From: Domibacillus indicus
GTDB lineage: Bacteria; Bacillota; Bacilli; Bacillales; Domibacillaceae
Direction of reading: 5' to 3'
DNA: 64,000 nucleotides
Assembly (NCBI RefSeq): GCF_023715895.1
Contig: NZ_JAMBOO010000002.1
Location: 372,001 to 436,000, forward strand
Below the pieces are notes generated by a model. The model had not been told where the DNA came from and did not search any database. It worked only from the letters and a program-made list of their open reading frames with translations. Shown here in pieces: positions 11,304 to 23,559 of this stretch (the first letter of the stretch is position 1; the number at the start of each line of letters is the position of its first letter). Position numbers and translations under genes: made by a program.

Positions 11304-11513
11304 GCCTCTTTCCTTGTTCCTCCTTTTATTCGGAAATACTGTTCATTGTTGCCGTATTAATTGTTCATTATACGTACGATTTCGCTGTTTTCACAACTAA
11401 TCTGTTTGGGGAAAAAGGGCTCTAAAACACCGTCCCCAAAAGCCGTTTTCTCCCATCTTCTTTTATCCATACCCACTTTTTTTAGAAACAAGACTCTGTC
11501 CAAAAGAAAAAGA
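11304..11513. other. Intergenic stretch left of repeat element A
   Basis: About 210 bases upstream of the SGNH hydrolase. It should carry that gene's promoter, but no box pair was resolved. No convincing gene is present. A partial copy of the adjacent hairpin motif (GACTCTGTCC near 11492) precedes the left hairpin of the repeat. Confidence 0.4.
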
Positions 11514-11905
11514 AACTCTGCCCCGAGGACAGAGTTCCAGTGTGTAGATAAAGTCTTTCGCTTTAAAAAAAGAGCCGATAAGTGAAGCCTGCCCGACTTC
11601 ACTGAGTGGCATTAAAGATTAATAAGCAAGGACCAAATAGAGATTTTCTCTTTTTTTAACAGAAAACTATGACCTTGTTAGCCCCATACAATCTTATCAC
11701 AAGTCACTTGGCGGCGGGAGGGCAGCGCAGACTCCTATGGGACTAGCGGGCAGCTGAGACCAGTGGAGCCGCTAGGCGAAATCGGGCTCAGCGCCTGCCC
11801 CATGGAAAGCGGAGCTGCCTGGACGCCGTCGGTCCATCCCATTCATATGCACGATCATCCATATAATTTGTCGACAGTCTAAAACTCTGCCCTGAGGACA
11901 GAGTT
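11514..11905. repeat. Hairpin-flanked interspersed element, copy A
   Basis: The body at 11538-11880 starts AGTGTGTAGATAAAG and ends ATTTGTCGACAGTCT, forming imperfect terminal inverted repeats. It is bracketed by two nearly identical hairpins, AACTCTG...CAGAGTT at 11514-11536 and at 11883-11905; the right one is the prsA-like gene's terminator. The interior has an AT-rich part and a GC-rich part (about 11709-11830: GACTCCTATGGGACTAGCGG, CTGAGACC, CCCATGGAAAGCGGAGCTG), of a type I recall as common in Bacillaceae intergenic repeats. Same family as copies at 22521-23025 and, truncated, 19962-20037. No coding frame. Confidence 0.8.
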
Positions 11906-11912
11906 CTTTCTT

Positions 11913-12797
11913 TTATTCAAATGAATTGTAAATATCATAGTCTTCCTTTTTTTCTTCCAGCCAGGTTGTATATTCACTCGACATTTTTTCCTGCTTGAGC
12001 GTTTCTTTAATTTCCTCTTTGCTGTCTTCCAAGTTAGCAGCTTTCGCTTCTTTCTTTCCTGTTACTTTAATAATATGATAGCCGTAATCGGTTTTAACCG
12101 GTTCGCTGATTTCACCAATCTCCATCGCAAAAGCTGCTTTCTCGAATTCCCCGGTCATTTCCCCTGTACCGAAGTAGCCCAGCTCACCGCCATTTTCCGC
12201 ACTTGTTGTATCGGTAGAATATTCTTTTGCCAGCGCTGCAAAGTCTTCTCCGTCTGCAAGCTTCGCTGCAACTTCTTTTGCTGTCGCTTCGTCATCTACT
12301 AAAATGTGGCTGGCTTCTACCTGTTCAGATGTGGCAAACGTATCTTTGTTTTCATTAAAATAAGTCTCGATTTCTTCATCTGTGATTTCGATGCGCGGCT
12401 CAAGCAATTTCACCGTCTCAAGATATACTTTAATTTCTTCTTTCATATCTGCTTCGGTCATACCGCTTGATTCAAGCGCTGACTTGTACGCTTCTTCTCC
12501 TCCGTACGACTCAATGGTTGCGTCCAGTTCTTCTTGAATCTCCTTATCCGTCACCTGCACCTTTTCCTTAGCGGCTTCTTTTTCCACAATCTTGTCCGCA
12601 ATTAACGATTCCGCTGCGTCTGCTCCGTACATTTTTACGAGTGAATCATACAAATCATCTTTCGTAATTTTGGTTCCGCCTACCTCCGCAATCGTTTCTG
12701 CACTGCTGCCGGCTGTGGCAAAAAAGAATCCAGCCGCCGCTATTGCTGCGATAATCGCAGCCCATACATACGTTTTTCCTTTTTTTAAAGCGTTCAT
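11913..12797 (-). CDS. prsA: PrsA-like foldase, parvulin-type peptidyl-prolyl isomerase
   Basis: A 294-residue extracytoplasmic foldase. After an N-terminal hydrophobic segment (about 10-30), the SurA/PrsA N-terminal helical region spans about 35-155, followed by a parvulin domain (about 155-250) with VEASHILVDDEATAKEVAAK, STDTTSAENGGELGYFGTGE and YGYHIIKVTGKKE, all typical. PrsA helps secreted proteins fold outside the membrane. Unusually the lipobox Cys of classic PrsA is missing (the region reads FFFATAGSSAET), so the protein must be held by its hydrophobic segment or released. The terminator hairpin after the gene is the one duplicated around repeat A. GGGAGAG precedes the start. Confidence 0.85.
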   Translation of the reverse strand: MNALKKGKTYVWAAIIAAIAAAGFFFATAGSSAETIAEVGGTKITKDDLYDSLVKMYGADAAESLIADKIVEKEAAKEKVQVTDKEIQEELDATIESYGGEEAYKSALESSGMTEADMKEEIKVYLETVKLLEPRIEITDEEIETYFNENKDTFATSEQVEASHILVDDEATAKEVAAKLADGEDFAALAKEYSTDTTSAENGGELGYFGTGEMTGEFEKAAFAMEIGEISEPVKTDYGYHIIKVTGKKEAKAANLEDSKEEIKETLKQEKMSSEYTTWLEEKKEDYDIYNSFE

Positions 12798-12864
12798 TTT
12801 TTCTCTCCCTGCTATTTATTTTCCGAGTTCAGTATAAAAAACAAAAGTGAAAAAACGGTGAAAG

Positions 12865-13494
12865 TCAAATGAATGTTCCGCCGTTTTTAACAAAATCCAT
12901 TTCCTGTTTGATCACTTCCATTTTTTGATCGAGCTCGGTCATCGTGTCCGCTGCACTTTTCAGTTCTCTTTGCAGGCGGGGCGGAATGACACCGTCAAAT
13001 TTATAAAACAGCTTATGCTCCAGTCCTGCCCAGAAATCCATCGCAGCCGTACGGATTTGCACTTCAACCATCGTTTTTTCGGTTGAAGCCGCCATAAAAA
13101 CAGGAATTTCAATGATCGCATGCAAACTTTGATAGCCGTTTGGTTTCGGCTGTTTGATGTAATCTTTTACATGTGCAAGTTGAATATCCCGCTGTTGCTT
13201 GAGCATTTGCAGCACTTGGTAGATGTCGGCTGCAAACGAACATGTAATGCGAATGCCGGCAATATCGTGCACATGGCGCCGTGCATTTTCCGGGGTTAAC
13301 GCGTAACCTTTTCGGTTTAACTTTTGAATAATGCCATGCTGATTTTTCAATCGCGATTTAATATGTTCAATCGGATTGTATTGGTGGATATGCTGAAACT
13401 CTTCATTTAAAATATTCAGCTTCGTATTTACTTTATCCAGCGCAAATTTGTGAATCAGCATCAGTTTTTTCCATTCATCCATTTCCTGCTCCAT
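12865..13494 (-). CDS. relP: Small alarmone synthetase (RelP/YwaC type)
   Basis: A 209-residue single-domain (p)ppGpp synthetase without hydrolase or regulatory domains. HKFALDKVNTKLNILNEEF, the HIHQYNPIEHIKSRLK motif, VHDIAGIRITCSF, KPNGYQSLHAIIEIPVF and VEVQIRTAAMDFWAGLEHKL match the synthetase fold, with the Glu of EVQIRT coordinating magnesium. The pattern is closer to B. subtilis YwaC (RelP, SAS2) than to YjbM (RelQ). RelP-type enzymes are usually induced by cell-wall stress; no SigM or SigW promoter was recognised here. Apparently monocistronic. Confidence 0.85.
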   Translation of the reverse strand: MEQEMDEWKKLMLIHKFALDKVNTKLNILNEEFQHIHQYNPIEHIKSRLKNQHGIIQKLNRKGYALTPENARRHVHDIAGIRITCSFAADIYQVLQMLKQQRDIQLAHVKDYIKQPKPNGYQSLHAIIEIPVFMAASTEKTMVEVQIRTAAMDFWAGLEHKLFYKFDGVIPPRLQRELKSAADTMTELDQKMEVIKQEMDFVKNGGTFI

Positions 13495-13560
13495 CTACCG
13501 CACTTCCTTTGTAACATGATCTGCCTTTTATCGTAGCGGAAGAAAGTGAAAATAAAATGA

Positions 13561-13584
13561 AAAAAGCACCCATAAAGGATGCTT
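13561..13584 (-). terminator. Terminator of the 131-residue unknown gene
   Basis: AAGCACCC-ATAAA-GGATGCTT (one mismatch) is followed on the minus strand by six T and overlaps the stop codon of the gene ending at 13583. Confidence 0.6.
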
Positions 13585-13978
13585 ACTTTTCTTCATGCCC
13601 GCCTATTAACATAAAATCTCCAAATTGGTTTACATCAACATTGATCCTGTCACATGCATTCAAGTATCTTAAAATGATAATAAACCGGTCTTGAGAAATC
13701 CCCTTTTTCTCCATCTGTGCCCGCATTTCTTCAATGGGGGGAAGCTCGTCTGTTTCCGTCTTTGCCTCCATAAAAGGAGAAAAATATCGGTATACCGTCT
13801 CCACTTCTTCTTTCCGGACAACGGAGAGCTCCCCGAATTCTTTCGCCAGCGCTTCTTCAAATCCATTTTTAAGTCCGTAAATATGGCCTTTATCGGCTTT
13901 GTCAATGCCCTGCCGGCTTTGAAGATCGTATAGTTCTCCCATTATTTTTCCGAGGATCAATGTCAGGTTTGTATCCAC
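13583..13978 (-). CDS. Hypothetical protein, 131 residues
   Basis: A soluble acidic, mostly helical protein starting MDTNLTLILGKIMGELYDLQ. No membrane segment, signal peptide or known catalytic motif is seen. The pattern of short amphipathic helices and an EEMRAQMEKKGISQDRFIII region suggests a small helical fold, possibly like Bacillus DUF1878-type proteins, but I cannot confirm this. AAAGGAGG precedes the start and a terminator overlaps its end, so it is very likely expressed as a single gene. Confidence 0.7.
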   Translation of the reverse strand: MDTNLTLILGKIMGELYDLQSRQGIDKADKGHIYGLKNGFEEALAKEFGELSVVRKEEVETVYRYFSPFMEAKTETDELPPIEEMRAQMEKKGISQDRFIIILRYLNACDRINVDVNQFGDFMLIGGHEEK

Positions 13979-14040
13979 TTTATCCCTCCTTTTTTCTTTA
14001 GTCTTAGGCAGATGAACGCTATTTATACAGCTTGAGCCTG

Positions 14041-14337
14041 TTAATCGGAACGAATCTTACGTGCTGCCAGCCACTGGCGGAGAGAAGTTCTTGAAAAATA
14101 CGTTTTTCCATTTACATCAATAGATGGAATATCCCGATATTTTTGAAGCAGTTCTTTCGTATCCTGCTTCGGTGCGCCCAAAAAACGATGCAAAGTATCC
14201 TCCTGAATAAGCTCAGACTGACCTCTTCGCTTGAAATGATCGATAAACGTTTTTTCAGATGGATTTTTCCAATTTTTAAGACCGTCTCCGATAAAATAGC
14301 CGGCCAGTGCAATCCCAGCGCCTAAAAATAAACTCAC
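14041..14337 (-). CDS. Hypothetical protein, 98 residues, N-terminal hydrophobic segment
   Basis: Starts MSLFLGAGIALAGYFIGDGL, a short hydrophobic N-terminal helix of about 17 residues, followed by a charged domain with SIDVNGKTYFSRTSLRQWLA near the end. That last segment resembles helix-turn-helix excisionase-type folds (a 'read name, choose row' motif) but is too short for a firm call. A membrane-tethered DNA- or protein-binding role is possible. AAGGAGGACAAGC precedes the start. Single gene between the 131-residue unknown and desR. Confidence 0.65.
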   Translation of the reverse strand: MSLFLGAGIALAGYFIGDGLKNWKNPSEKTFIDHFKRRGQSELIQEDTLHRFLGAPKQDTKELLQKYRDIPSIDVNGKTYFSRTSLRQWLAARKIRSD

Positions 14338-14411
14338 AGCTTGTCCTCCTTTTTCTTCTGTGCTTTTTTATCTTATGAGCGAATGGCCTCCGTCATCTCT
14401 TTTTCTTCCAT

Positions 14412-14436
14412 AAAAAAAAGCGTGCTTCTGCACGCT
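14412..14436 (-). terminator. Terminator of the des-desK-desR operon
   Basis: AGCGTGC (14419-14425) TTCT GCACGCT (14430-14436), then eight T on the minus strand, a few bases after the desR stop codon. Confidence 0.85.
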
Positions 14437-14441
14437 CTCCT

Positions 14442-15041
14442 TTATTTAAACCAGCCTTTTTCTTTAGATTGAGAAATGGCTTCTATTCGATTTTTCACTT
14501 CCAGCTTATCGAAAATCGTAGAGATGTAATTGCGGACGGTCCCGTTTTTTAAATTCAGCTGCTTTGCAATCTCTCCTGTGCTTTTTCCTTCTGAAACAAG
14601 AGCCAGCACATCTTTTTCACGTTCCGTCAGCGGATTTTCTTCACTGTATAAGTCATCCATCAATTCCGGCGCATATACTTTTCGGCCATTCATAATATTT
14701 CGGATAGAGCTCGCCAGTTCATCGCTTGGACTGTCCTTTAGTAAATACCCGCTCACTTTTGCTTTTAATGCCCGCTGGAAATAGCCTGTGCGGGCAAATG
14801 TCGTTAAAATAATCACCTTACATGCATCATTTTTTAATTCTTCGGCCGCTTCAAGCCCTGTTTTCAGCGGCATTTCAATATCCATTATACAAATGTCCGG
14901 CTGCAGCTCCCGCACAAGTGTAACAGCTTCTTCTCCATTTGCAGCTTGTCCAACCACTTCCATATCATCTTCCAAGCTGAGCAGCGACCCAAGTGCTCCA
15001 AGAAGCATGCGCTGGTCCTCTGCAATGACAATGCGGATCAT
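14442..15041 (-). CDS. desR: DesR, response regulator for fatty acid desaturase
   Basis: A 199-residue NarL/FixJ-type response regulator. The receiver domain (1-120) has the acidic pair in IAEDQRML and phospho-acceptor Asp54 in ICIMDIEMP, the same number as in B. subtilis DesR. The C-terminal LuxR-type helix-turn-helix covers about 135-195 (LTEREKDVLALVSEGKSTGE). It is phosphorylated by DesK in the cold and activates des. Its start overlaps the desK stop by four bases. The candidate target is the palindrome at 17346-17369. Confidence 0.9.
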   Translation of the reverse strand: MIRIVIAEDQRMLLGALGSLLSLEDDMEVVGQAANGEEAVTLVRELQPDICIMDIEMPLKTGLEAAEELKNDACKVIILTTFARTGYFQRALKAKVSGYLLKDSPSDELASSIRNIMNGRKVYAPELMDDLYSEENPLTEREKDVLALVSEGKSTGEIAKQLNLKNGTVRNYISTIFDKLEVKNRIEAISQSKEKGWFK

Positions 15042-16171
15042 TTCATTCCCTCCCTGTCATGCTGTGTGACATTGTTCGGTACCGTCATAACTAAAACTGT
15101 GCCATTTTCACTTCGGATCTCTAAACTTCCATTTACGAACTCAAGCCGCTCCCGCATACCAGGCAGTCCGCTTCCTTTTCCAATATCCTGGCGGCTGAGC
15201 CCTACACCATCGTCTTTTACGGTCATTCGAACGGAATCTTCAAGCTGCTCAATCGATATATGGCAGGAAAAGGCCTGGCTGTGTTTTACGATATTCGTTA
15301 CCGCTTCTTTCATGCACATACTGAGCACATTTTCCACAAACAGCGATACATTTACAAGCTGAAAAGAATCAGCGCCTGTATACTCAATTTGTGCAGCCCG
15401 CAGCATTTGCTGAACAAGGACAATTTCATCATTCACCCGGATGCCCCGCATAGACGAAACAAGGTTTCTCACTTCATTCAGTGCAGTTCGTGCCGTTTGC
15501 TGCACATCCAGCAGCTCTCCTCTTGCCCGCTCCGGGTCTTTTTCGATCAGCTTGCGCGCCAAATCGCTTTTTAATCCAATGAGGGAAAGCTTCTGGCCAA
15601 GCGTATCATGCAGATCACGAGCGATCCGCTGGCGTTCCTCCTGTTTCACAAGATCAGCAATCCGGTTGTTGGCAAGCTGCAGCTCAGCTTCAAGCTTATC
15701 CTGTTTTTTTCGGTTGTACAATGAAAAGGGCAACAGCACAATGCCAATAAATACGATGACAATAATGGGAATCTGCTGAATAAACAGTGGGTCCTGAACC
15801 ACAAGGTTATAGTTAATAGAACCAATGGTGCTGACCAGGTGGATCACGTAAGCTGTTATAAAAGCCGCACGCTTACGGATATTTCCATTGTAATAAGCAA
15901 TGTAGAATGAAAAGTAAATAAACTGATACATAACCGTCATGGCTACAGAAATGCCGACAAGAAGGCAGACCCAGAAGTAAACCGGCCACCTGGATGATAA
16001 AAAAGCAAACCTGAAGCTGATAAAAAACAAAATCGTCAATGTAATGCCGATGACAATTTCATTCGTGGACGACGACTGAAAAATAAAATAAAACGGCAGC
16101 AGACTTAAAATAATCCATATATAAGGAGACAAGCCGGAGCTTTTCCCAAACGATGCGAATCTTTTTTTCAT
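15038..16171 (-). CDS. desK: DesK, membrane thermosensor histidine kinase
   Basis: A 377-residue sensor kinase. About five hydrophobic helices occupy residues 15-150, followed by a coiled linker (about 153-180) and the HisKA_3 motif RIARDLHDTLGQKLS, in which the phospho-acceptor is His188, the same position as in B. subtilis DesK. The HATPase part ends with VKDDGVGL and GSGLPGMRERLEFVNGSLEI. DesK measures membrane thickness and order and switches from phosphatase to kinase on cooling. Lies between des and desR, as in B. subtilis. Very confident from the combination of neighbours and residues. Confidence 0.92.
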   Translation of the reverse strand: MKKRFASFGKSSGLSPYIWIILSLLPFYFIFQSSSTNEIVIGITLTILFFISFRFAFLSSRWPVYFWVCLLVGISVAMTVMYQFIYFSFYIAYYNGNIRKRAAFITAYVIHLVSTIGSINYNLVVQDPLFIQQIPIIVIVFIGIVLLPFSLYNRKKQDKLEAELQLANNRIADLVKQEERQRIARDLHDTLGQKLSLIGLKSDLARKLIEKDPERARGELLDVQQTARTALNEVRNLVSSMRGIRVNDEIVLVQQMLRAAQIEYTGADSFQLVNVSLFVENVLSMCMKEAVTNIVKHSQAFSCHISIEQLEDSVRMTVKDDGVGLSRQDIGKGSGLPGMRERLEFVNGSLEIRSENGTVLVMTVPNNVTQHDREGMK

Positions 16172-16201
16172 ACGACACCTTTTTTATTTTTATTTTACCA
16201 C

Positions 16202-16232
16202 AAAAAAACTGCCCTCACTTGAGTGGGGGCAG
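16202..16232 (-). terminator. Terminator between des and desKR
   Basis: CTGCCCTCAC (16209-16218) pairs with GTGGGGGCAG (16223-16232) and is followed on the minus strand by seven T. It would separate the cold-induced des transcript from desKR, allowing partial read-through. Confidence 0.8.
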
Positions 16233-16241
16233 CTTTTCAAA

Positions 16242-17267
16242 CTACTGAATGGCACTTCGTTTACCAAGTGAGCCATATGTTTTTTTAGCTTGTTTAAATG
16301 TAACGAATTTATCCTGTTCCTCATCCCAAAGGCGAAACTTTACAGACTGGATACTGGTCCAGAGTGTGATAGTCGGAACACTTTGAAGCGGTTCGGAATT
16401 TGAGTGCGCTGCTTCAAGCTGATAATTTGGCACGCGCGGGCTTAAATGATGCACATGGTGAAAGCCAATATTACCGGTAATCCATTGAAGCGGCTTTGGC
16501 AGTTTGTAAAACGAGCTTCCTTCTACTGCTGCTTTTACATAACTCCAATGTTCATCTTCTTCAAAATACGAATCCTCAAAGGTATGCTGCACATAAAACA
16601 ACCACACACCCATCGCACCGGCGATCCAGAACATCGGGCCATGTACAAGGAGAAACGCCTGCCAGCCGACGAGCCAGCACATAAGGGCGACGCCAAGAAG
16701 AAGAAGCACATTCGTTAAGTATGTGTTCATGCGTTCTTTTTTGCGGGCGCCTTTCACGTTAAAACGGTTGGTGATCAAGAACACCCATATTGGACCAATA
16801 ACGAACATGATAAACGGATTGCGATATAAACGGTATGCAATACGTGTTTTCAATGGCGCTTCATAATATTCATTAACCGTCAGCATCCACATGTCTCCTG
16901 TACCGCGCTTGTCAAGATTTGAGCTTGTTGCGTGGTGGACATTATGGCTGTGCTGCCACTGGTCATACGGGAAAAACGTTAAAACACCTGTGATCGTGCC
17001 TACTACCCGGTTCAGCTTGCGGTTCTTAAAAAAGGAGTGGTGGCAGCAATCGTGAAAAATAATAAAGATGCGTGTAATAAACCCGGCACCGATTACCGAT
17101 AACCCGAGTGTCAGCCAGTAGGAAATTTGCAGGCTTTGGTATGCAAGAAACCAGACCAGCAAAAACGGGCCAATTGTATTGATTAATTGAAAGATGCTTT
17201 TATGCGTATCAGATTTTTCATAGGGGGCTACTTGTTTTCGTAAAATTTTTGTATGTTCTTTGCTCAT
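16242..17267 (-). CDS. des: Fatty acid desaturase Des
   Basis: A 341-residue acyl-lipid desaturase that introduces double bonds into membrane phospholipid chains. Four or more membrane segments surround three His boxes: HDCCHHSFF, HSHNVHHATSSNLD and FHHVHHLSPRVPNY, which bind the di-iron centre. The start at 17267 has GGAGGGAACGTAAAC upstream; the frame runs open to 17345 but would enter the promoter. First gene of des-desK-desR. A promoter and palindrome that fit DesR control are described separately. Confidence 0.93.
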   Translation of the reverse strand: MSKEHTKILRKQVAPYEKSDTHKSIFQLINTIGPFLLVWFLAYQSLQISYWLTLGLSVIGAGFITRIFIIFHDCCHHSFFKNRKLNRVVGTITGVLTFFPYDQWQHSHNVHHATSSNLDKRGTGDMWMLTVNEYYEAPLKTRIAYRLYRNPFIMFVIGPIWVFLITNRFNVKGARKKERMNTYLTNVLLLLGVALMCWLVGWQAFLLVHGPMFWIAGAMGVWLFYVQHTFEDSYFEEDEHWSYVKAAVEGSSFYKLPKPLQWITGNIGFHHVHHLSPRVPNYQLEAAHSNSEPLQSVPTITLWTSIQSVKFRLWDEEQDKFVTFKQAKKTYGSLGKRSAIQ

Positions 17268-17298
17268 GTTTACGTTCCCTCCGCTCAGTAATAACTTT

Positions 17299-17327
17299 AC
17301 TATAGCGGAAGGAAAGCGTGTTGTGCA
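17299..17327 (-). promoter_or_regulatory. Promoter of des
   Basis: Minus strand: -35 TGCACA (17327-17322), 17 bases, -10 TATAGT (17304-17299). The -35 box is weak against TTGACA, as expected for an activator-dependent promoter. The predicted start lies near 17292, 25 bases before the des ATG. Confidence 0.6.
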
Positions 17328-17345
17328 GTAGCACCCGTCATACAA

Positions 17346-17369
17346 TCAATATGACAAGTGTCATATTGA
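17346..17369. promoter_or_regulatory. Candidate DesR-binding palindrome
   Basis: TCAATATGACA-AG-TGTCATATTGA is a perfect inverted repeat with 11-base arms, centred about 65 bases upstream of the predicted des start of transcription. In B. subtilis DesR binds in the same interval (about -28 to -77). The site spans the stop codon of the upstream nucleotidase gene. Confidence 0.6.
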
Positions 17370-19847
17370 TTTTTGCCCGAGCAAATAAAGCACTTTTGCC
17401 GCCTCGGCCCGTGTCGCCGTGTCGCCCGGCTTAAATGTTTTGCCTGTTCCCTCCATCAAGCCGAGCTGATACGCTTTCTGAATGGATTGTTGAATAGATG
17501 TGCGGTATTGGCCCACATCGTTAAACGGCATAGAGCCCGTTAATTTAACTGCTCCGTGTTCTTTTTCATAAGCGCGCACGAGCATGGCTGCCATCTCGGC
17601 ACGGCTGATCGATTTAGCCGGTTCAAACGTTTTAGCTGTTGTGCCCTTTACAACGCCTGCTTCGAATGCAGCCGTAATATCCTGCTTCAGCCGGCCCTTT
17701 ACATCGACAAATGGTGTTTCTTTTTGGGCCGTCCATTTCATGGTACGGACGAGCATGCTCGCAAACTGGCCGCGTGTCACATCGCCTTCAGGATCGAATG
17801 TTGCATCTGTTTTGCCTTTAATAATGCCTGCTTCAGCGAGTGCCGCGATATACTCAGCTGCCCAGTGATCCGCTGGCACGTCTGCAAAGGACGGCGCACC
17901 TGCTGTGCCTTTGTTTAAGTCAAGCTCAAAAATGCCAAATCCTTTTTCATCGGTTTTGCCCGTATACGTAATGTTATCCGTTTCTTTGGCAAGCGCTTCT
18001 GCTTTTGGATTAGAGGTAAACGTTGCTTTCGCTTTTGTTTTGGCAAATGTCCAGTTGTTATCTACTGCTGCGTCAATTTCTTTGAATTCCTTTACATAAT
18101 TCATTACCGCCTGGCGGTTGGAATCCGGTGCTTTTAATACCGTGTTTACGCCGCCTGGATTCATCAGCTTGCTGCCTGCTGCCCGATAATCATTGGTGGC
18201 TACGATAAACTCCATCTCATCTGTTACCGGTTTGCCATTAAATTTTAAATTTTTAATCCGGTTTGCCGATGCGTTGATCACATTTTGTCCTTTGTCGTAT
18301 TTCGGCAGGGATGTCACATTGATCTCATAGGTAACGCCGTCGATCACGTCAAAGTTGTAGGTCGGGAAATCCGGGTTAATCAGTGCTTGTCCATCTCCTT
18401 TTGCCGGATCGATCGTGTTAAACTGTCCTGCTGACCATTCAAGCCACTCTTTCAAAGTGGCACCGTTTACTTTAATGGCATTGACGACGTTGTTGTCGTA
18501 TAGGTACAGATCCGCAATGTTTTTCAGCACGAGCGTGCCTGCTTGAACATCCGTATAATCTTCTACGCCACCGCGTCCTGCTTTAAATGGTGCCGCTGCT
18601 GAAAGGACAGGAAGGTTCTCATACTGCGTACCTTTCAGTGCATCTTCTACATACCAGGTTTGTGCCCGGTTTAAAATTTCCATTGCCGCATTATCCCGCA
18701 CAAGACCAAAATACGTATTTAAATCTCCTTTGAGCTCTCCTACTGGTGTTTCCATATACTTAATCGTCGCTTCGTGTTCGGTTTGAACAGATGCTGCAAC
18801 AGCGGCATCCGCTTCTACAGTCACATTACCGGATGTAATCGGCTTAAGAGAACCAGTTCCGCTTGTTACATCCCATTTTCCATTCACTTTTTGAATCTGG
18901 AGATCAATCAGCCCAATGTTATTGCCCCATGATCCAGGCATAACTGTCGGAACACCATTAATAGTCCCATTTGTGTTATCGATACCGCTTCCATCCGGAA
19001 AAGACGGCTTGGCCGCATTCGGAAAGCTCAAATGCTGGTGGCCTGTTAAAACAGCATCTACACCTGGAATTTTCGTTAAATAATAAGAAGCGTTTTCAAT
19101 GCCTTCTGTATACTCTTTCATGGCGCCGTTCTGGTCATACTCGGCAATGCCAGAATGGGAAAGAATCACAATCACATCCGCTCCCGCTTCCTTCATTTGC
19201 GGCACCACCTTTTGAGCGGACTTTACAATGTCCCCCACCACCAGTTTTCCTTCTAGGTGCTTGGCATCCCATTTCATAATGTCCTGTGGTACAAAACCGG
19301 TCACGCCGACTTTAATTGTATGTACTTCTCCGTCTGTATCTTTTACTTCTTTCTCAATGATTTTAAACGGCGTAAAATAAGGATTTCCTTCCGTGTCATA
19401 AACGTTCGCATTTACGTATGGGAACGCTGCCCCGCTAAGCGCTGTATCCATATACTCAAGCCCATAGTTGAATTCATGGTTGCCGATTGTTGCTGCATCA
19501 TAGCCAAGTTGATTCATCGCTTTGTATACCGGGTGAATATAGCCTTCCTTCATTAATCCGTTGTTATATACGTAATCACCAAGCGGGCTTCCTTGAATTA
19601 AATCGCCATTGTCAAAAAGCATGCTGTTGTCTGCTTCCCCGCGCACCTGTTTGATTAAGGTAGCCGCTTTAGCAAGCCCGTAGGCGTTCGTCGCCGAATC
19701 CTTATAGTAATCATAGTTCATTACATTAGAATGAAGATCGGATGTTTCTACAATACGCAGCTTTACAGTATCTTCGGCTGCCTCTGCCATCTGCGGCACA
19801 AATAACCCTGCTGCAATAACGGTTCCTACTGTCCAAGCTTTTTTCAT
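17361..19847 (-). CDS. Cell-wall 5'-nucleotidase/2',3'-cyclic phosphodiesterase with SLH domains
   Basis: An 828-residue exported enzyme. A signal peptide (about 1-23, ending QMAEAAEDT) precedes a calcineurin-like metallophosphatase domain (about 28-320: ETSDLHSNVMNYDYY, TIGNHEFNYGLEYMD, VLTGHQHLSFP), then the 5'-nucleotidase C-terminal domain (about 365-585) and three S-layer-homology repeats (about 660-828: SFADVPADHWAAEYI, PFVDVKGRLKQDITA, PFNDVGQYRTSIQQS). It probably dephosphorylates extracellular nucleotides while bound to secondary wall polymer, for phosphate or nucleoside salvage. Monocistronic; its end overlaps the candidate DesR site. Family clear; exact substrate inferred. Confidence 0.9.
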   Translation of the reverse strand: MKKAWTVGTVIAAGLFVPQMAEAAEDTVKLRIVETSDLHSNVMNYDYYKDSATNAYGLAKAATLIKQVRGEADNSMLFDNGDLIQGSPLGDYVYNNGLMKEGYIHPVYKAMNQLGYDAATIGNHEFNYGLEYMDTALSGAAFPYVNANVYDTEGNPYFTPFKIIEKEVKDTDGEVHTIKVGVTGFVPQDIMKWDAKHLEGKLVVGDIVKSAQKVVPQMKEAGADVIVILSHSGIAEYDQNGAMKEYTEGIENASYYLTKIPGVDAVLTGHQHLSFPNAAKPSFPDGSGIDNTNGTINGVPTVMPGSWGNNIGLIDLQIQKVNGKWDVTSGTGSLKPITSGNVTVEADAAVAASVQTEHEATIKYMETPVGELKGDLNTYFGLVRDNAAMEILNRAQTWYVEDALKGTQYENLPVLSAAAPFKAGRGGVEDYTDVQAGTLVLKNIADLYLYDNNVVNAIKVNGATLKEWLEWSAGQFNTIDPAKGDGQALINPDFPTYNFDVIDGVTYEINVTSLPKYDKGQNVINASANRIKNLKFNGKPVTDEMEFIVATNDYRAAGSKLMNPGGVNTVLKAPDSNRQAVMNYVKEFKEIDAAVDNNWTFAKTKAKATFTSNPKAEALAKETDNITYTGKTDEKGFGIFELDLNKGTAGAPSFADVPADHWAAEYIAALAEAGIIKGKTDATFDPEGDVTRGQFASMLVRTMKWTAQKETPFVDVKGRLKQDITAAFEAGVVKGTTAKTFEPAKSISRAEMAAMLVRAYEKEHGAVKLTGSMPFNDVGQYRTSIQQSIQKAYQLGLMEGTGKTFKPGDTATRAEAAKVLYLLGQKSI

Positions 19848-19961
19848 TCAACTGCCCCCTAAACTATTTTTTCAATATAGGAATTATAGCATGATCGGCG
19901 AAAAGAAATGAGAATATTTACAATTTTCTCAATAAAACTTTACATTATGTCAAATAAAAAA

Positions 19962-20037
19962 AGACATTTCAACTGAAATGTCTCAGTGCGTAGACAAAGT
20001 CTTTCGCTTTTAAAAAAGAGCCGATAAGTGAAGCCTG
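19962..20037. repeat. Truncated repeat element, copy C
   Basis: A hairpin AGACATTTC-AACT-GAAATGTCT (19962-19983) is followed directly by the left end of the element (19984-20037, containing GCGTAGACAAAGTCTTTCGC and GATAAGTGAAGCCTG). The rest of the element and the second hairpin are missing. The match to copies A and B over about 54 bases is near perfect. Confidence 0.8.
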
Positions 20038-20061
20038 ATATATTTGAAGGGAAGGGCCTTC

Positions 20062-20997
20062 TTATGAACAGGAGAGAATGCGTCTGGAAAAAGTACTTTT
20101 TCTTGCAATGCAGCGGTCTTGAATAACAAAACCGGCTTTCTCAACCATTTCTTCAATCGGATCAATCGATACGACAACGAGCCTGTCGGCAATGCGCCGT
20201 GCGTGCGTTAAAATGGACTGCAGCTCATCAGGCGTTGCATGTGTATACAGATTATATGGCATATCAATAATCGCTACATCATAATGCTCTTCTACTTCTT
20301 CAATCGGTCCGAGCGTGACACGGCCTTCGAGACCAAAGTAATCCAGGTTTTCACGCGAGCCTCCGACAACAAGCGGATTGATATCGCGCCCCTCAATGTC
20401 CATCCCCATTGATAAAGCTTCCACTAAAACAGTCCCGATCCCGCAGCATGGATCGACAGCCCGAATGCCTTCCGGCTCTGGTACAGCAATATTCGCCATG
20501 ACCCGGGCATCCCGGGCACTAAGCGCTGTTGAATATTCACGCGGCTTTTGAATATGTTTCATCCATACACGCTTGTTTTTCTCATAACGCCCCAGATACC
20601 AGCGTCCGCCGCAAGCCACAAGGCCAAAGAGGTGATCCGGATTTTTCAAGTCCGCTTCCCCAATAATTTCCCAGCCAATAGCCCGTTCAATTTCCAGCCG
20701 TTCCTGATATTCCACCTTTTTTTCAGGCGGAAGGTCGTTCGTTTTTACAAAAATCGCTTTAAATGTTTCACTTCCTATATCGATGCTGCCGGCTTTTTGA
20801 ACGATGTCAGCCACCGAATCCGCCTCAAGAAGCACTTCTACTTTTTCCCGTATAAACGGGCTTCGATTCACGTCCAGATCGACGCTGCTTTTCACTACCG
20901 GCCCGGAGGCAGACGAACCGAAAAAAGCGCGCAGCTCCATTTCAGCCAGTTCTTCGTCTTCCTCACTATAATTCACTGTATAAATAAATTCGTTCAC
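20062..20997 (-). CDS. TRM11-like SAM-dependent methyltransferase
   Basis: A 311-residue putative RNA or DNA methyltransferase. An N-terminal region of about 150 residues (MNEFIYTVNYSEEDEELAE) resembles THUMP-like RNA-binding modules, followed by a Rossmann methyltransferase domain with RAVDPCCGIGTVLVEALS (SAM-binding motif I), DIEGRDINPLVVGGSRENLD and VAIIDMPYNLYT (a D/N-P-P-Y-like catalytic motif, here DMPY). The family includes tRNA guanosine N2-methyltransferases, so a tRNA substrate is likely but not proven. A GTG start at 20997 with AAGGATCAAT upstream is preferred over the ATG at 21030. Confidence 0.82.
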   Translation of the reverse strand: MNEFIYTVNYSEEDEELAEMELRAFFGSSASGPVVKSSVDLDVNRSPFIREKVEVLLEADSVADIVQKAGSIDIGSETFKAIFVKTNDLPPEKKVEYQERLEIERAIGWEIIGEADLKNPDHLFGLVACGGRWYLGRYEKNKRVWMKHIQKPREYSTALSARDARVMANIAVPEPEGIRAVDPCCGIGTVLVEALSMGMDIEGRDINPLVVGGSRENLDYFGLEGRVTLGPIEEVEEHYDVAIIDMPYNLYTHATPDELQSILTHARRIADRLVVVSIDPIEEMVEKAGFVIQDRCIARKSTFSRRILSCS

Positions 20998-21081
20998 ATT
21001 GATCCTTCTTTCTATTATCCTCTGCTTCATTTATTTTGACATACTTTTCTCCATTGGGCTCCTTTTTTTCATGGAAAATAA

Positions 21082-21115
21082 AAAACCCTGACGATTATTC
21101 GAAATCGTCAGGGTT
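21082..21115. terminator. Terminator overlapping the end of the 46-residue protein gene
   Basis: AAAACCCTGACGATT (to 21096) pairs with AATCGTCAGGGTTTTT (21103 onward), loop ATTCGA. The stop codon at 21095 lies inside the stem. Confidence 0.85.
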
Positions 21116-21235
21116 TTTATCTTCAGGGCGCTTTTCCTTTTTATCCTGTGCGCGCTGCGGTTCGATATCTTCACCGCGCTCTTTCTTTCGTTGCTGCTCT
21201 ATTGAGTCATTGGACTGTTTGTTTTCTTCTGTCAT
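21095..21235 (-). CDS. Small, highly charged hydrophilic protein, 46 residues
   Basis: Starts MTEENKQSNDSIEQQRKKER and continues with Glu/Lys/Asp-rich sequence; no hydrophobic core at all, so probably intrinsically disordered. AAAGGAGG lies nine bases before the ATG at 21235, and the stop codon is embedded in a strong terminator, so it is a genuine gene. Such small hydrophilic proteins are common in Bacillaceae, sometimes as spore or stress proteins, but nothing links this one to a role. Confidence 0.7.
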   Translation of the reverse strand: MTEENKQSNDSIEQQRKKERGEDIEPQRAQDKKEKRPEDKNPDDFE

Positions 21236-21334
21236 GTGAATGTGCCTCCTTTGATCTGTCTCTTTTACGTTATTTCCACATTTTCTTGAAAATAAACAAA
21301 GATTATAATCTGGCACCATGTAAAAACAAAAGGG

Positions 21335-21514
21335 CTACTTCTTTTTTAAGATGCCCACTGTCCGCACCATTGATCCAATAAACATGACGAGTGCGCCTGC
21401 AACGAGCAGGATGAGAAACGTATTTTTTGGAATGACGCCCATCGGATAAAGAAGCCCGCTCAAAATAGCGATTAGTCCAAGAACTGTTAATGCCCAACCG
21501 AATTTAATCATCAT
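21335..21514 (-). CDS. Small two-helix membrane protein, 59 residues
   Basis: Two hydrophobic helices (about 5-24, FGWALTVLGLIAILSGLLYP, and about 31-52) joined by a short loop, with a Lys-rich C-terminus (GILKKK) that should lie in the cytoplasm. GGTAAG precedes the tandem ATG start. The open frame continues far upstream in antisense to the exonuclease gene, but only this part has protein-like composition. Function unknown. Confidence 0.6.
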   Translation of the reverse strand: MMIKFGWALTVLGLIAILSGLLYPMGVIPKNTFLILLVAGALVMFIGSMVRTVGILKKK

Positions 21515-21631
21515 CTTACCTGCCTTACCTGCTTTTTCTGCTAGTGTACCACACGCCCGATTGTATTTCATGCCTAAAACCAGTACACTTATTCTACTAT
21601 AACTATGATTAACGTAAAGGATGATCCAGAC

Positions 21632-22519
21632 GTGAAAAATTTCACTGCACTTGATTTCGAGACGGCGAACGCCAGCCGAAGCAGTGTTTGTTCGATTGGA
21701 CTGGCAAAAGTAGTCGATGGAGAAATCAAAAAAACGTACTATTCGCTTGTTAATCCGAAAGAGCGGTTTGACAGCCGGAATATCGCCGTGCACGGCATCC
21801 GGCCGGAAAATGTAGCGGACGCGCCCTCGTTCAGCGATATTTTCGATGAAGTAATGGCTTTTATCGGAGAGGATCCAATTGTGGCTCACTTTGCCCAATT
21901 CGACATCAGCGTCCTGCGCAGCACAGCTCAAAAACATAGGCTGTCCCTGCCGAATAATCCATATTTCTGTTCCTGTATGCTGGCAAAATCTATGTTGAAT
22001 CTGCCTTCTAACAAATTGAATGTAGTAGCCGGCCACTTTAACTTTACATTCAATCATCATAATGCGCTGGAAGATGCCGTTGCCTGTGCAGTCGTGGTAA
22101 ACGGTATGATGGAACGCCACGCTTCGCTTGCTGCCTTTCTCCAGGAAGCGCAGTATGGCTTCGGCTATATTCACGGCGAGTCTTTTCGCAAAAAGAAGCC
22201 GGACAAGCGGGCTCCACTTCAAAAGCCAAAAGCAGATGCGGGCGTACATCCTTTTGCGCAAAAAGCCATTTCATTTACCGGCACGCTTACATCTATGAAA
22301 CGGCAGGAAGCCATCCATATTGTCCAAAGCCTTGGTGCCAGCATTCATCCTACCGTTAAAAAGAACACTGATTATTTAATCGTCGGTGAATCTGATGCGA
22401 AAAAATACCGAGACGGACAGCTTTCCGCCCAAATTCAACGGGCAAAAAACTGGCAGTCAAAAGGCGGAGCCATCAAGCTCGTTTCTGAGCAAAAATTTTT
22501 CAAAGCAATCCGTTTATAA
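21632..22519 (+). CDS. DnaQ-like 3'-5' exonuclease with C-terminal BRCT domain
   Basis: A 295-residue protein with a DEDD exonuclease domain (about 1-165: FTALDFETANASRSSVCSIG, AHFAQFDISVLRSTA, HNALEDAVACAVV, giving the DED-Dh acidic set) and a BRCT domain at about 215-290 (ISFTGTLTSMKRQEAIHIVQ, KNTDYLIVGE). This pairing resembles DNA polymerase III epsilon-like proteins that trim 3' ends in repair or replication. GTG at 21632 is chosen since AAAGGATGA lies upstream; the ATG at 21605 has no site. Terminated by the left hairpin of repeat B. Confidence 0.85.
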   Translation: MKNFTALDFETANASRSSVCSIGLAKVVDGEIKKTYYSLVNPKERFDSRNIAVHGIRPENVADAPSFSDIFDEVMAFIGEDPIVAHFAQFDISVLRSTAQKHRLSLPNNPYFCSCMLAKSMLNLPSNKLNVVAGHFNFTFNHHNALEDAVACAVVVNGMMERHASLAAFLQEAQYGFGYIHGESFRKKKPDKRAPLQKPKADAGVHPFAQKAISFTGTLTSMKRQEAIHIVQSLGASIHPTVKKNTDYLIVGESDAKKYRDGQLSAQIQRAKNWQSKGGAIKLVSEQKFFKAIRL

Positions 22520-22520
22520 A

Positions 22521-23025
22521 AAGAACGCACTTCTTATCTGAGTGCGTTCTTTCAGTGTGTAGACAAAATCTTTCGCTTTTAAAAAAGAGCCGATAAGTGA
22601 AGCCTGCCGGACTTTGCACACCTTAGGGCAGTGCGGGAGCCTCCTCGGCTGCGCCTGCGGGGTCTCCCGACTCACTGTACTTCCCGCAGGAGTCTTCGCC
22701 CGGCAGGCTTCACTAAGTAGTATGGAAGGTCCATAAGCAAGGACTGTATAAAACCTTTCTCCTTTTTAAACAGAAAGATATGACCTTATCAGCTCTATAC
22801 AACCTTGTCGCAAGCCACTTGGCGGCGGGAGGGCGGCGCAGACTCCTATGGGACTAAGCGGGCAGCTGAGACCGGTGAAGCCGCCAGGGGAAGTCGGGCT
22901 CAGCGCCTGCCCCATGGAAAGCGGAGCTGCCCGGACGCCGCCAATCTATCCCATTTATGTGCACGGTCATCCATATCATTTGTCTACAGTCTGAAAGAAC
23001 GCACTTTTTATTTAAGTGCGTTCTT
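22521..23025. repeat. Hairpin-flanked interspersed element, copy B (with nested segment)
   Basis: Body about 22553-22993 with matching terminal inverted repeats TGTAGACAAA (22558-22567) and TTTGTCTACA (22979-22988). It is bracketed by hairpins with identical stems AAGAACGCACT/AGTGCGTTCTT (22521-22551 and 22995-23025) but different loops. These are the terminators of the exonuclease gene and of the convergent membrane-protein gene. The right part (about 22820-22945) matches copy A closely. The left part holds an extra segment of roughly 100 bases (about 22607-22705) not in copy A, itself closed by AGTGAAGCCTGCC and GGCAGGCTTCACT. No transposase. Confidence 0.85.
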
Positions 23026-23559
23026 TTTGCTCTGTTTTGGCCGAATGAAATAGCTGGCTGTTATTAGAAGATCAATCCCTAATACAAGCGTCCAAATGCG
23101 CAAAATCTGCCAGAGTGCTTCTGTTCGTTCTCCCCCGGCAACCAGCAGGATGATGCCATACAGCAGTCCGGCTCCAATTCCGTAAGCGAAAACATGGCGT
23201 ATAGTGTTTTTTAAATCCTGCTTAGCAAAAGCAAAGCCTGTTTTCGACACCGGCTTGCTGCCCTCTTTCAGCACATAGTGGCGGAATGTCTCATCGGCCC
23301 ATCTGATCATGCTTTTCCCATAAGCAACGGAAACACCGATATAAACGGCCGCAATGCCATGAGCCATGCTGGCCGATGCTCCTCTTTGAAGATCTGTTAC
23401 TGTAAATATCAGCAGCAGCAAATCTATTATGGGGGTAAGCGCTAAAAAAAGCAGACCCGCTTTTTCCTTTTGGAATACATATCTTATCGTTAAACCCACT
23501 CCGATAACCACCCAAAACGCTGCTTCACACGCAATAATAAGCCAGGCAATGGTATCCAT
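23008..23559 (-). CDS. Integral membrane protein, 183 residues
   Basis: Five to six hydrophobic helices are visible (starting MDTIAWLIIACEAAFWVVIG, then LLFLALTPIIDLLLLIFTV, HGIAAVYIGVSVAYG, FAYGIGAGLLYGIILLVAG, TLVLGIDLLITASYFI). It resembles, from memory, B. subtilis YmcC-type proteins of unknown function. It is divergent from a TetR regulator gene with a long perfect palindrome between them, so it is probably the regulator's target. Its stop codon lies in the loop of the right hairpin of repeat B. Confidence 0.75.
   Translation of the reverse strand: MDTIAWLIIACEAAFWVVIGVGLTIRYVFQKEKAGLLFLALTPIIDLLLLIFTVTDLQRGASASMAHGIAAVYIGVSVAYGKSMIRWADETFRHYVLKEGSKPVSKTGFAFAKQDLKNTIRHVFAYGIGAGLLYGIILLVAGGERTEALWQILRIWTLVLGIDLLITASYFIRPKQSKKNALK

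What the first reader, a model, noticed from the sequence alone, without database searches (positions are those of the whole stretch)
11514..23025. Interspersed element family inserted between duplicated terminator hairpins
Copies A (11514-11905) and B (22521-23025) share terminal inverted repeats close to TGTAGACAAA/TTTGTCTACA and about 250 bases of similar interior. Each is bracketed by two hairpins that are the same within a locus (AACTCTG/CAGAGTT in A; AAGAACGCACT/AGTGCGTTCTT in B) but differ between loci. A third copy C (19962-20037) keeps the left end after another hairpin (AGACATTTC/GAAATGTCT). An insertion into a terminator that duplicates the whole hairpin, far longer than a usual target duplication, would explain this. 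The loops differ more than the stems, so the hairpin may be under selection. No transposase is in the window. Whether this family has been described is unknown to me; the GC-rich inner part resembles intergenic repeats I recall from many Bacillaceae.
Basis: partly seen in the sequence, partly recalled or inferred. Interest (0 to 1): 0.7.

Follow-up and report, generated by a model that had tools for sequence, protein, structure and literature searches.

The report
Mobile elements that duplicate terminator hairpins
Small mobile DNA elements in this bacterium, and the larger transposon that probably moves them, land exactly on the hairpins that end transcription and copy the whole hairpin to both sides, so the size of the duplicated piece is set by the shape of the target and not by the enzyme.

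Summary
Confirmed. A, B and C are copies of a non-autonomous, MITE-like family. Of 18 distinct copies with both ends readable, 15 have the same hairpin on both sides. Relatives hold an uninterrupted allele with one hairpin at 7 of 15 sites examined, A and B included; two more sites are probable. No empty allele with two hairpins was seen.

A fitting transposase lies elsewhere in the genome: an IS1182-family enzyme (NF033551, 472 bits) on elements with the same ends (CAGNNTGTAGACAAA) and hairpin habit. In 80 kept related loci, 147 of 149 readable IS ends abut a hairpin (random positions 537 of 20000). In 65 loci a 19-42 bp target duplication was measured; its centre equals the hairpin's centre in 63.

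Best explanation: the transposase joins both element ends to the 5' feet of a terminator hairpin, probably as a cruciform, so the duplication equals the hairpin. Palindrome targeting by IS1182 members is known, and IS1272 deletes the hairpin; whole-hairpin duplication appears as a hypothetical pathway in PMC5678879. The claim that loops differ more than stems is not significant (p=0.21).

The parts
11513..11537 (.). Copy A, left copy of the target hairpin
   Evidence: Sequence; fold z -3.6; single copy of this hairpin in G008 and G010
11538..11881 (+). Copy A of the MITE-like element, 344 bp
11882..11906 (.). Copy A, right copy of the target hairpin, just downstream of the ORF 11913-12797 (-)
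19962..19983 (.). Site C, hairpin left of the remnant
   Evidence: two hairpins around a complete element in G041 and G008
19984..20037 (+). Copy C, left-end remnant; right part and right hairpin lost
22520..22552 (.). Copy B, left copy of the target hairpin, directly after the ORF 21605-22519 (+)
   Evidence: z -5.6
22553..22993 (+). Copy B of the MITE-like element, 441 bp; no ORF over 82 aa overlaps it
22994..23026 (.). Copy B, right copy of the target hairpin, overlapping the 3' end of the ORF 23008-23559 (-)
   Evidence: z -6.3; single hairpin in G041 and G008

Best explanation
A, B and C are non-autonomous elements moved by an IS1182-family DDE transposase encoded elsewhere in the genome. 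The transposase picks its target by structure: an intrinsic-terminator hairpin of any sequence. It joins the two 3' ends of the element to the two 5' feet of the hairpin, one on each strand. Gap repair then copies the hairpin, so the element sits between two identical hairpins and the duplication is as long as the hairpin. Shown: shared ends, hairpin targets, exact hairpin duplication, centre coincidence, single-hairpin empty alleles. Inferred: that this enzyme moves the MITE, and that the target is an extruded double-stranded cruciform, where the two attacked phosphates lie close together whatever the hairpin length.
For: 15 of 18 copies with both ends have matching hairpins. One-hairpin empty alleles with both flanks aligned at A, B, L003, L006, L016, L018 and L023, 7 of 15 sites. 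IS1182 transposase in the genome with CAGNNTGTAGACAAA ends next to hairpins. Of 80 related loci, 68 had both ends and 65 gave a duplication of 19-42 bp; 63 of these 65 have no mismatch, all 65 sequences differ, and in 63 the centre is the hairpin's centre. 147 of 149 ends abut a hairpin against 537 of 20000 random positions. 63 of 65 against 295 of 200000 same-length windows for centred pairing. In 60 of 65 sites a T-rich tail or A-rich lead flanks the duplication, as at terminators. Independent use of the same terminator: the IS itself at site B in G010, and opposite element orientations at L004, L006 and L013.
Against: No transposition was observed. The MITE and the IS share little beyond the ends, so mobilisation in trans is inferred. 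Three of 18 MITE copies have unlike hairpins; L175, L265 and L274 are IS copies with unlike hairpins at their two ends and L161 lacks one at its right end. In 53 of 63 cases pairing could go on past the duplication, so the junction is inside the A/T foot and not at the outermost possible pair. The 80 loci are the best of 480 and many come from a few genomes. Five distant IS1182 members on plasmids gave no clear duplication.
Confidence: 0.82

Rival explanations
1. The same duplication arises on a single-stranded hairpin, on the lagging strand or in a transcription bubble, and not on a double-stranded cruciform.
For: Terminators are where transcription makes hairpins; hairpins in single strands form more easily than cruciforms (general knowledge).
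Against: Both strands must be joined at symmetric places 19-42 bases apart, which is most easily pictured on a cruciform. Opposite orientations occur at the same terminator. Neither point is decisive.
Confidence: 0.2
2. The hairpins are part of the element and travel with it.
For: The same hairpin stands on both sides of a copy; the IS ends themselves fold into terminator-like hairpins.
Against: The flanking hairpins differ in all 65 measured IS loci, and empty alleles in relatives keep one of them.
Confidence: 0.02
3. Insertion is ordinary and random; only insertions beside terminators survive.
For: Such places are outside genes and should be harmless.
Against: Survival cannot make the duplication coincide with the hairpin to the base in 63 of 65 cases.
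Confidence: 0.02
4. The MITE is moved by another transposase with similar ends, not by the IS1182 enzyme of this genome.
For: Besides the ends there is little similarity; several small families with such ends coexist.
Against: The ends, the target and the form of the duplication agree with the IS, and G010 has the IS in the very terminator that holds MITE B here.
Confidence: 0.12

Closest known systems
IS1182 family (NCBI NF033551), with ISEfa7 of Enterococcus faecium as an annotated member
   Same: The presumed parent is a member by its transposase. An ISEfa7-annotated plasmid copy shows the same ends and a hairpin duplication (L264).
   Different: The MITE itself has no transposase. How ISfinder describes the duplications of this family could not be checked; I recall long and variable lengths.
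IS1272 and TnSha1 of staphylococci (PMC5678879: abstract, passages, discussion part 1, section 23; PMC4923244: passages)
   Same: IS1182 family; target is an inverted repeat or terminator hairpin of any sequence. Target size 21-38 bp there, 19-42 bp here.
   Different: There the hairpin is replaced or partly deleted and no duplication is made; here the whole hairpin is duplicated. PMC5678879 draws duplication as a hypothetical pathway b.
Bacterial MITEs in general (PMC10969869: passages)
   Same: Short, repeated, terminal inverted repeats, intergenic, no transposase, flanked by direct repeats.
   Different: The direct repeat is a whole terminator hairpin; none of the passages read describes this, and the text does not mention IS1182.
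bcr1-bcr18 repeats of the Bacillus cereus group (PMC6542083: passages)
   Same: Short interspersed, apparently mobile repeats in Bacillaceae.
   Different: A TTTAT motif is reported there. Sequences were not compared.

Membership tests
IS1182 family (presumed parent element) | Transposase of the family | tested here: met
   P0001: NF033551, 472.2 bits, cut-off 270; PF13751, PF05598, PF01609
IS1182 family (presumed parent element) | Terminal inverted repeats | tested here: met
   CAGNNTGTAGACAAA at both ends
IS1182 family (presumed parent element) | Palindromic target in some members, as cited in PMC5678879 and PMC4923244 | tested here: met
   147 of 149 ends abut a hairpin
IS1272-like hairpin replacement | Target hairpin lost, no duplication | tested here: not met
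   Hairpin duplicated in 65 of 68 IS loci with both ends scored
MITE derived from this IS | Ends like those of the IS | tested here: met
   CAGNNTGTAGACAAA shared; B matches the host IS over its 15 right-end bases and the Domibacillus aminovorans IS at 14 of 15 left-end bases
MITE derived from this IS | No transposase of its own | tested here: met
   441 bp, largest overlapping ORF 82 aa
MITE derived from this IS | Same form of target duplication | tested here: met
   15 of 18 copies; one-hairpin empty alleles at 7 of 15 sites
MITE derived from this IS | Mobilised in trans by the IS transposase | not testable with these tools
   Needs a transposition assay

The most novel reading that the evidence does not exclude
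A DDE transposase whose duplication length is not built into the enzyme: it attacks the four-way junction of an extruded cruciform at the 5' feet of both hairpins, so each target gives a duplication equal to its own hairpin (19-42 bp seen). This is the sister outcome of the hairpin-deleting IS1272 reaction. Because the whole terminator is copied to both sides, the elements can spread through the terminators of a genome without removing them.
Probability: 0.6. Interest if true: 0.75.

Novelty: new variant of a known kind. Interest (0 to 1): 0.6.

Why it matters
DDE transposases normally make a fixed, short target duplication (general knowledge). Here it is long, variable and equal to a DNA structure, which is sequence evidence that the enzyme reads shape. 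It turns a pathway drawn only as a possibility in PMC5678879 into a measured pattern in several genera, and makes cruciform targeting testable with one protein and a supercoiled plasmid. It also places a class of intergenic repeats, gives a rule for finding their ends, and suggests why they cost the host little: the terminator survives in two copies.

Tried and rejected
Stem against loop divergence as proof of selection: the first count (p=3e-7) was biased because broken pairs were counted as loop; the unbiased count gives p=0.21. Five double changes against 1.2 expected, four of them keeping the pair, are suggestive only; quasi-palindrome correction (recalled) could make them. Duplication length against the outermost G:C span gave only r=0.68, with two A/T-rich outliers; against stem pairs Spearman is 0.85 (n=64), which is partly built in, since a hairpin with a small loop is necessarily longer when it has more pairs. 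Rfam found only two tRNAs in the window. A search for the GC-rich repeat by its letters listed one unrelated paper. Distant IS1182 members on plasmids (L270-L273, L275) gave no clear ends, so nothing is claimed about them. No structure prediction was run. Literature: ten searches, of which seven bear on hairpin duplication and three on repeats. I saw listings, and opened four papers (PMC5678879, PMC4923244, PMC10969869, PMC6542083), none in full. Among these I found duplication of a whole stem-loop only as a hypothetical pathway. Two standard IS reviews are not held.

Full report
The observation. I read the three places and searched the host genome with copy A (49 matches, best 30 as loci). 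The family ends with CAGNNTGTAGACAAA on both sides. A is 11538-11881 between hairpins 11513-11537 and 11882-11906. B is 22553-22993 between hairpins 22520-22552 and 22994-23026. C is a remnant, 19984-20037, behind the hairpin 19962-19983; in G041 and G008 site C is complete, with a hairpin on each side.

Flanking hairpins. One search shows both ends for 18 distinct copies. A scan asking for matching flanks recovers 15 of them; one of these, L008, has a degenerate right hairpin. L017, L021 and L024 have hairpin-like flanks that do not match; I did not find out why. The scan also found nine insertions of other small families (L041, L043, L058, L072, L081, L085-L088). It required matching flanks, so these nine are not an unbiased sample.

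Empty alleles. For A and B I used neighbouring genes, for 13 more copies 110 bases of flank. One hairpin, no element and both flanks aligned were found at A (G008, G010), B (G041, G008), L003 (G041, G008), L006 (G041), L016 and L018 (G041, G008), and L023 (G041, G008): 7 of 15 sites (flanks of A and B judged by eye; scores). L010 (G008) has one hairpin but a weakly matching far flank (score 30), and L013 (G010) one hairpin with a far flank that does not align there; I count these as probable. At L002, L004, L005, L007, L008 and L020 the relatives seen carry an element end or were uninformative. No empty allele with two hairpins was seen. At L004, L006 and L013 relatives hold the element in the opposite orientation in the same terminator, and at site B genome G010 holds the autonomous IS. 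Independent insertions are the simplest reading; inversion in place is not excluded.

The presumed parent. The host has IS1182-type transposase genes. P0001, from contig C111, is intact and matches NF033551 with 472.2 bits. The C100 copy is split into two frames and a C117 fragment has a stop. Three IS insertions are cut by contig ends; in each, both halves carry the same hairpin as a direct repeat. I paired the contigs by that hairpin, so this is consistent but not independent. MITE B matches the host IS over its 15 terminal bases on the right, and the Domibacillus aminovorans IS at 14 of 15 bases near the left end; other matches are at chance level. The host is probably a Domibacillus, inferred from that closest IS (89%).

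The measurement in named genomes. 480 places encode a relative and the best 80 were kept. They belong to Bacillales, and many come from a few genomes, so they are not 80 independent lineages. 68 of 80 had both ends scored, and 65 of 68 gave a duplication next to the ends. It is 19 to 42 bp long, free of mismatch in 63 of 65, and different in all 65. In 63 of 65 its centre is the hairpin's centre; L136 and L145 are off by 1 and 1.5 bases. Of the three without one, L175 has a different hairpin on each side, L131 is two nested insertions each with its own matching hairpins, and L161 has a hairpin on the left only. Of the 12 loci without both ends, 8 are short loci at contig edges and 4 are full-length loci where one end was not found. 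Without asking for a duplication, 147 of 149 end matches abut a hairpin, against 537 of 20000 random positions in the same loci; the two misses are L161 and L166, the latter beside a run of N. Centred pairing of 0.85 or more is met in 63 of 65 duplications and 295 of 200000 same-length windows. The duplication ends 0-4 A:T pairs outside the outermost G:C pair in 61 of 63, while pairing could continue beyond it in 53 of 63. The junction thus falls in the soft A/T foot of the stem.

On plasmids, 12 loci were read. Four show a hairpin duplication (L264, annotated ISEfa7, and L268 in Enterococcus faecium; L266 Sutcliffiella; L267 Peribacillus). L265 and L274 have unlike hairpins at their ends, as recombination between copies would give, and L269 has a hairpin at the one end found. 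L270-L273 and L275, at 24-29% identity, gave nothing clear.

Mechanism. A stagger of 19 to 42 bases that equals the local hairpin is hard to get on linear DNA. [quoted passage not shown] Joining there and filling the gaps leaves one hairpin on each side. PMC5678879 draws this as pathway b, beside the hairpin-removing pathway it proposes for IS1272. PMC4923244 reports partial deletion of hairpins by TnSha1, five of which it confirms as terminators by RNA-seq. Shown here are the duplication and its geometry; the cruciform is inferred.

Effect on the host. Both hairpins keep their stems. The IS ends tested fold into strong hairpins followed by T-runs (z -7.1 to -7.5, three ends), so the IS brings further terminator-like structures; the left end of MITE A does not (z -0.4). 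That termination is kept is likely but untested, and divergence of the two hairpins does not prove selection.

Novelty. IS1182, MITEs and palindrome targeting are known. In the searches named I did not find whole-hairpin duplication as an observed outcome. I recall that ISfinder gives long variable repeats for this family, which I could not check. Hence a new variant of a known kind.

Noticed in passing
L032:1388-1445, L049:105-166, L175:2236-2290: The ends of the autonomous IS are themselves strong hairpins followed by T-runs, like built-in terminators.
   Followed up: partly
L041, L043, L058 and L081, L085-L088 (host genome): At least two further small families with related ends (CAGATTGTAGACAAATAAA... 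and GAGAGTGTAGACAAAGTAAG...) also sit between matching hairpins.
   Followed up: partly
window 22834-22945 and about 11712-11830; L188, L190, L195, L199: The GC-rich inner part recurs in other genera, also outside recognisable MITE ends and inside another hairpin-bounded family. No name for it was found.
   Followed up: partly
L131:1096-4395: An IS inserted inside another IS1182-type element, each with its own matching hairpin pair.
   Followed up: no
window 22520-23026 against L204, L205, L206: At site B the single hairpin of G041 has the loop of the right copy here, while that of G008 resembles the left copy. This could mean precise loss of the element by recombination between the hairpins, or old variation.
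   Followed up: no
L050, L051, L054, L055, L060, L061 and others: Other high-copy repeats contain TGTAGACAAA without a hairpin duplication; one reads like a TnpB zinc-finger stretch (motif recalled).
   Followed up: no
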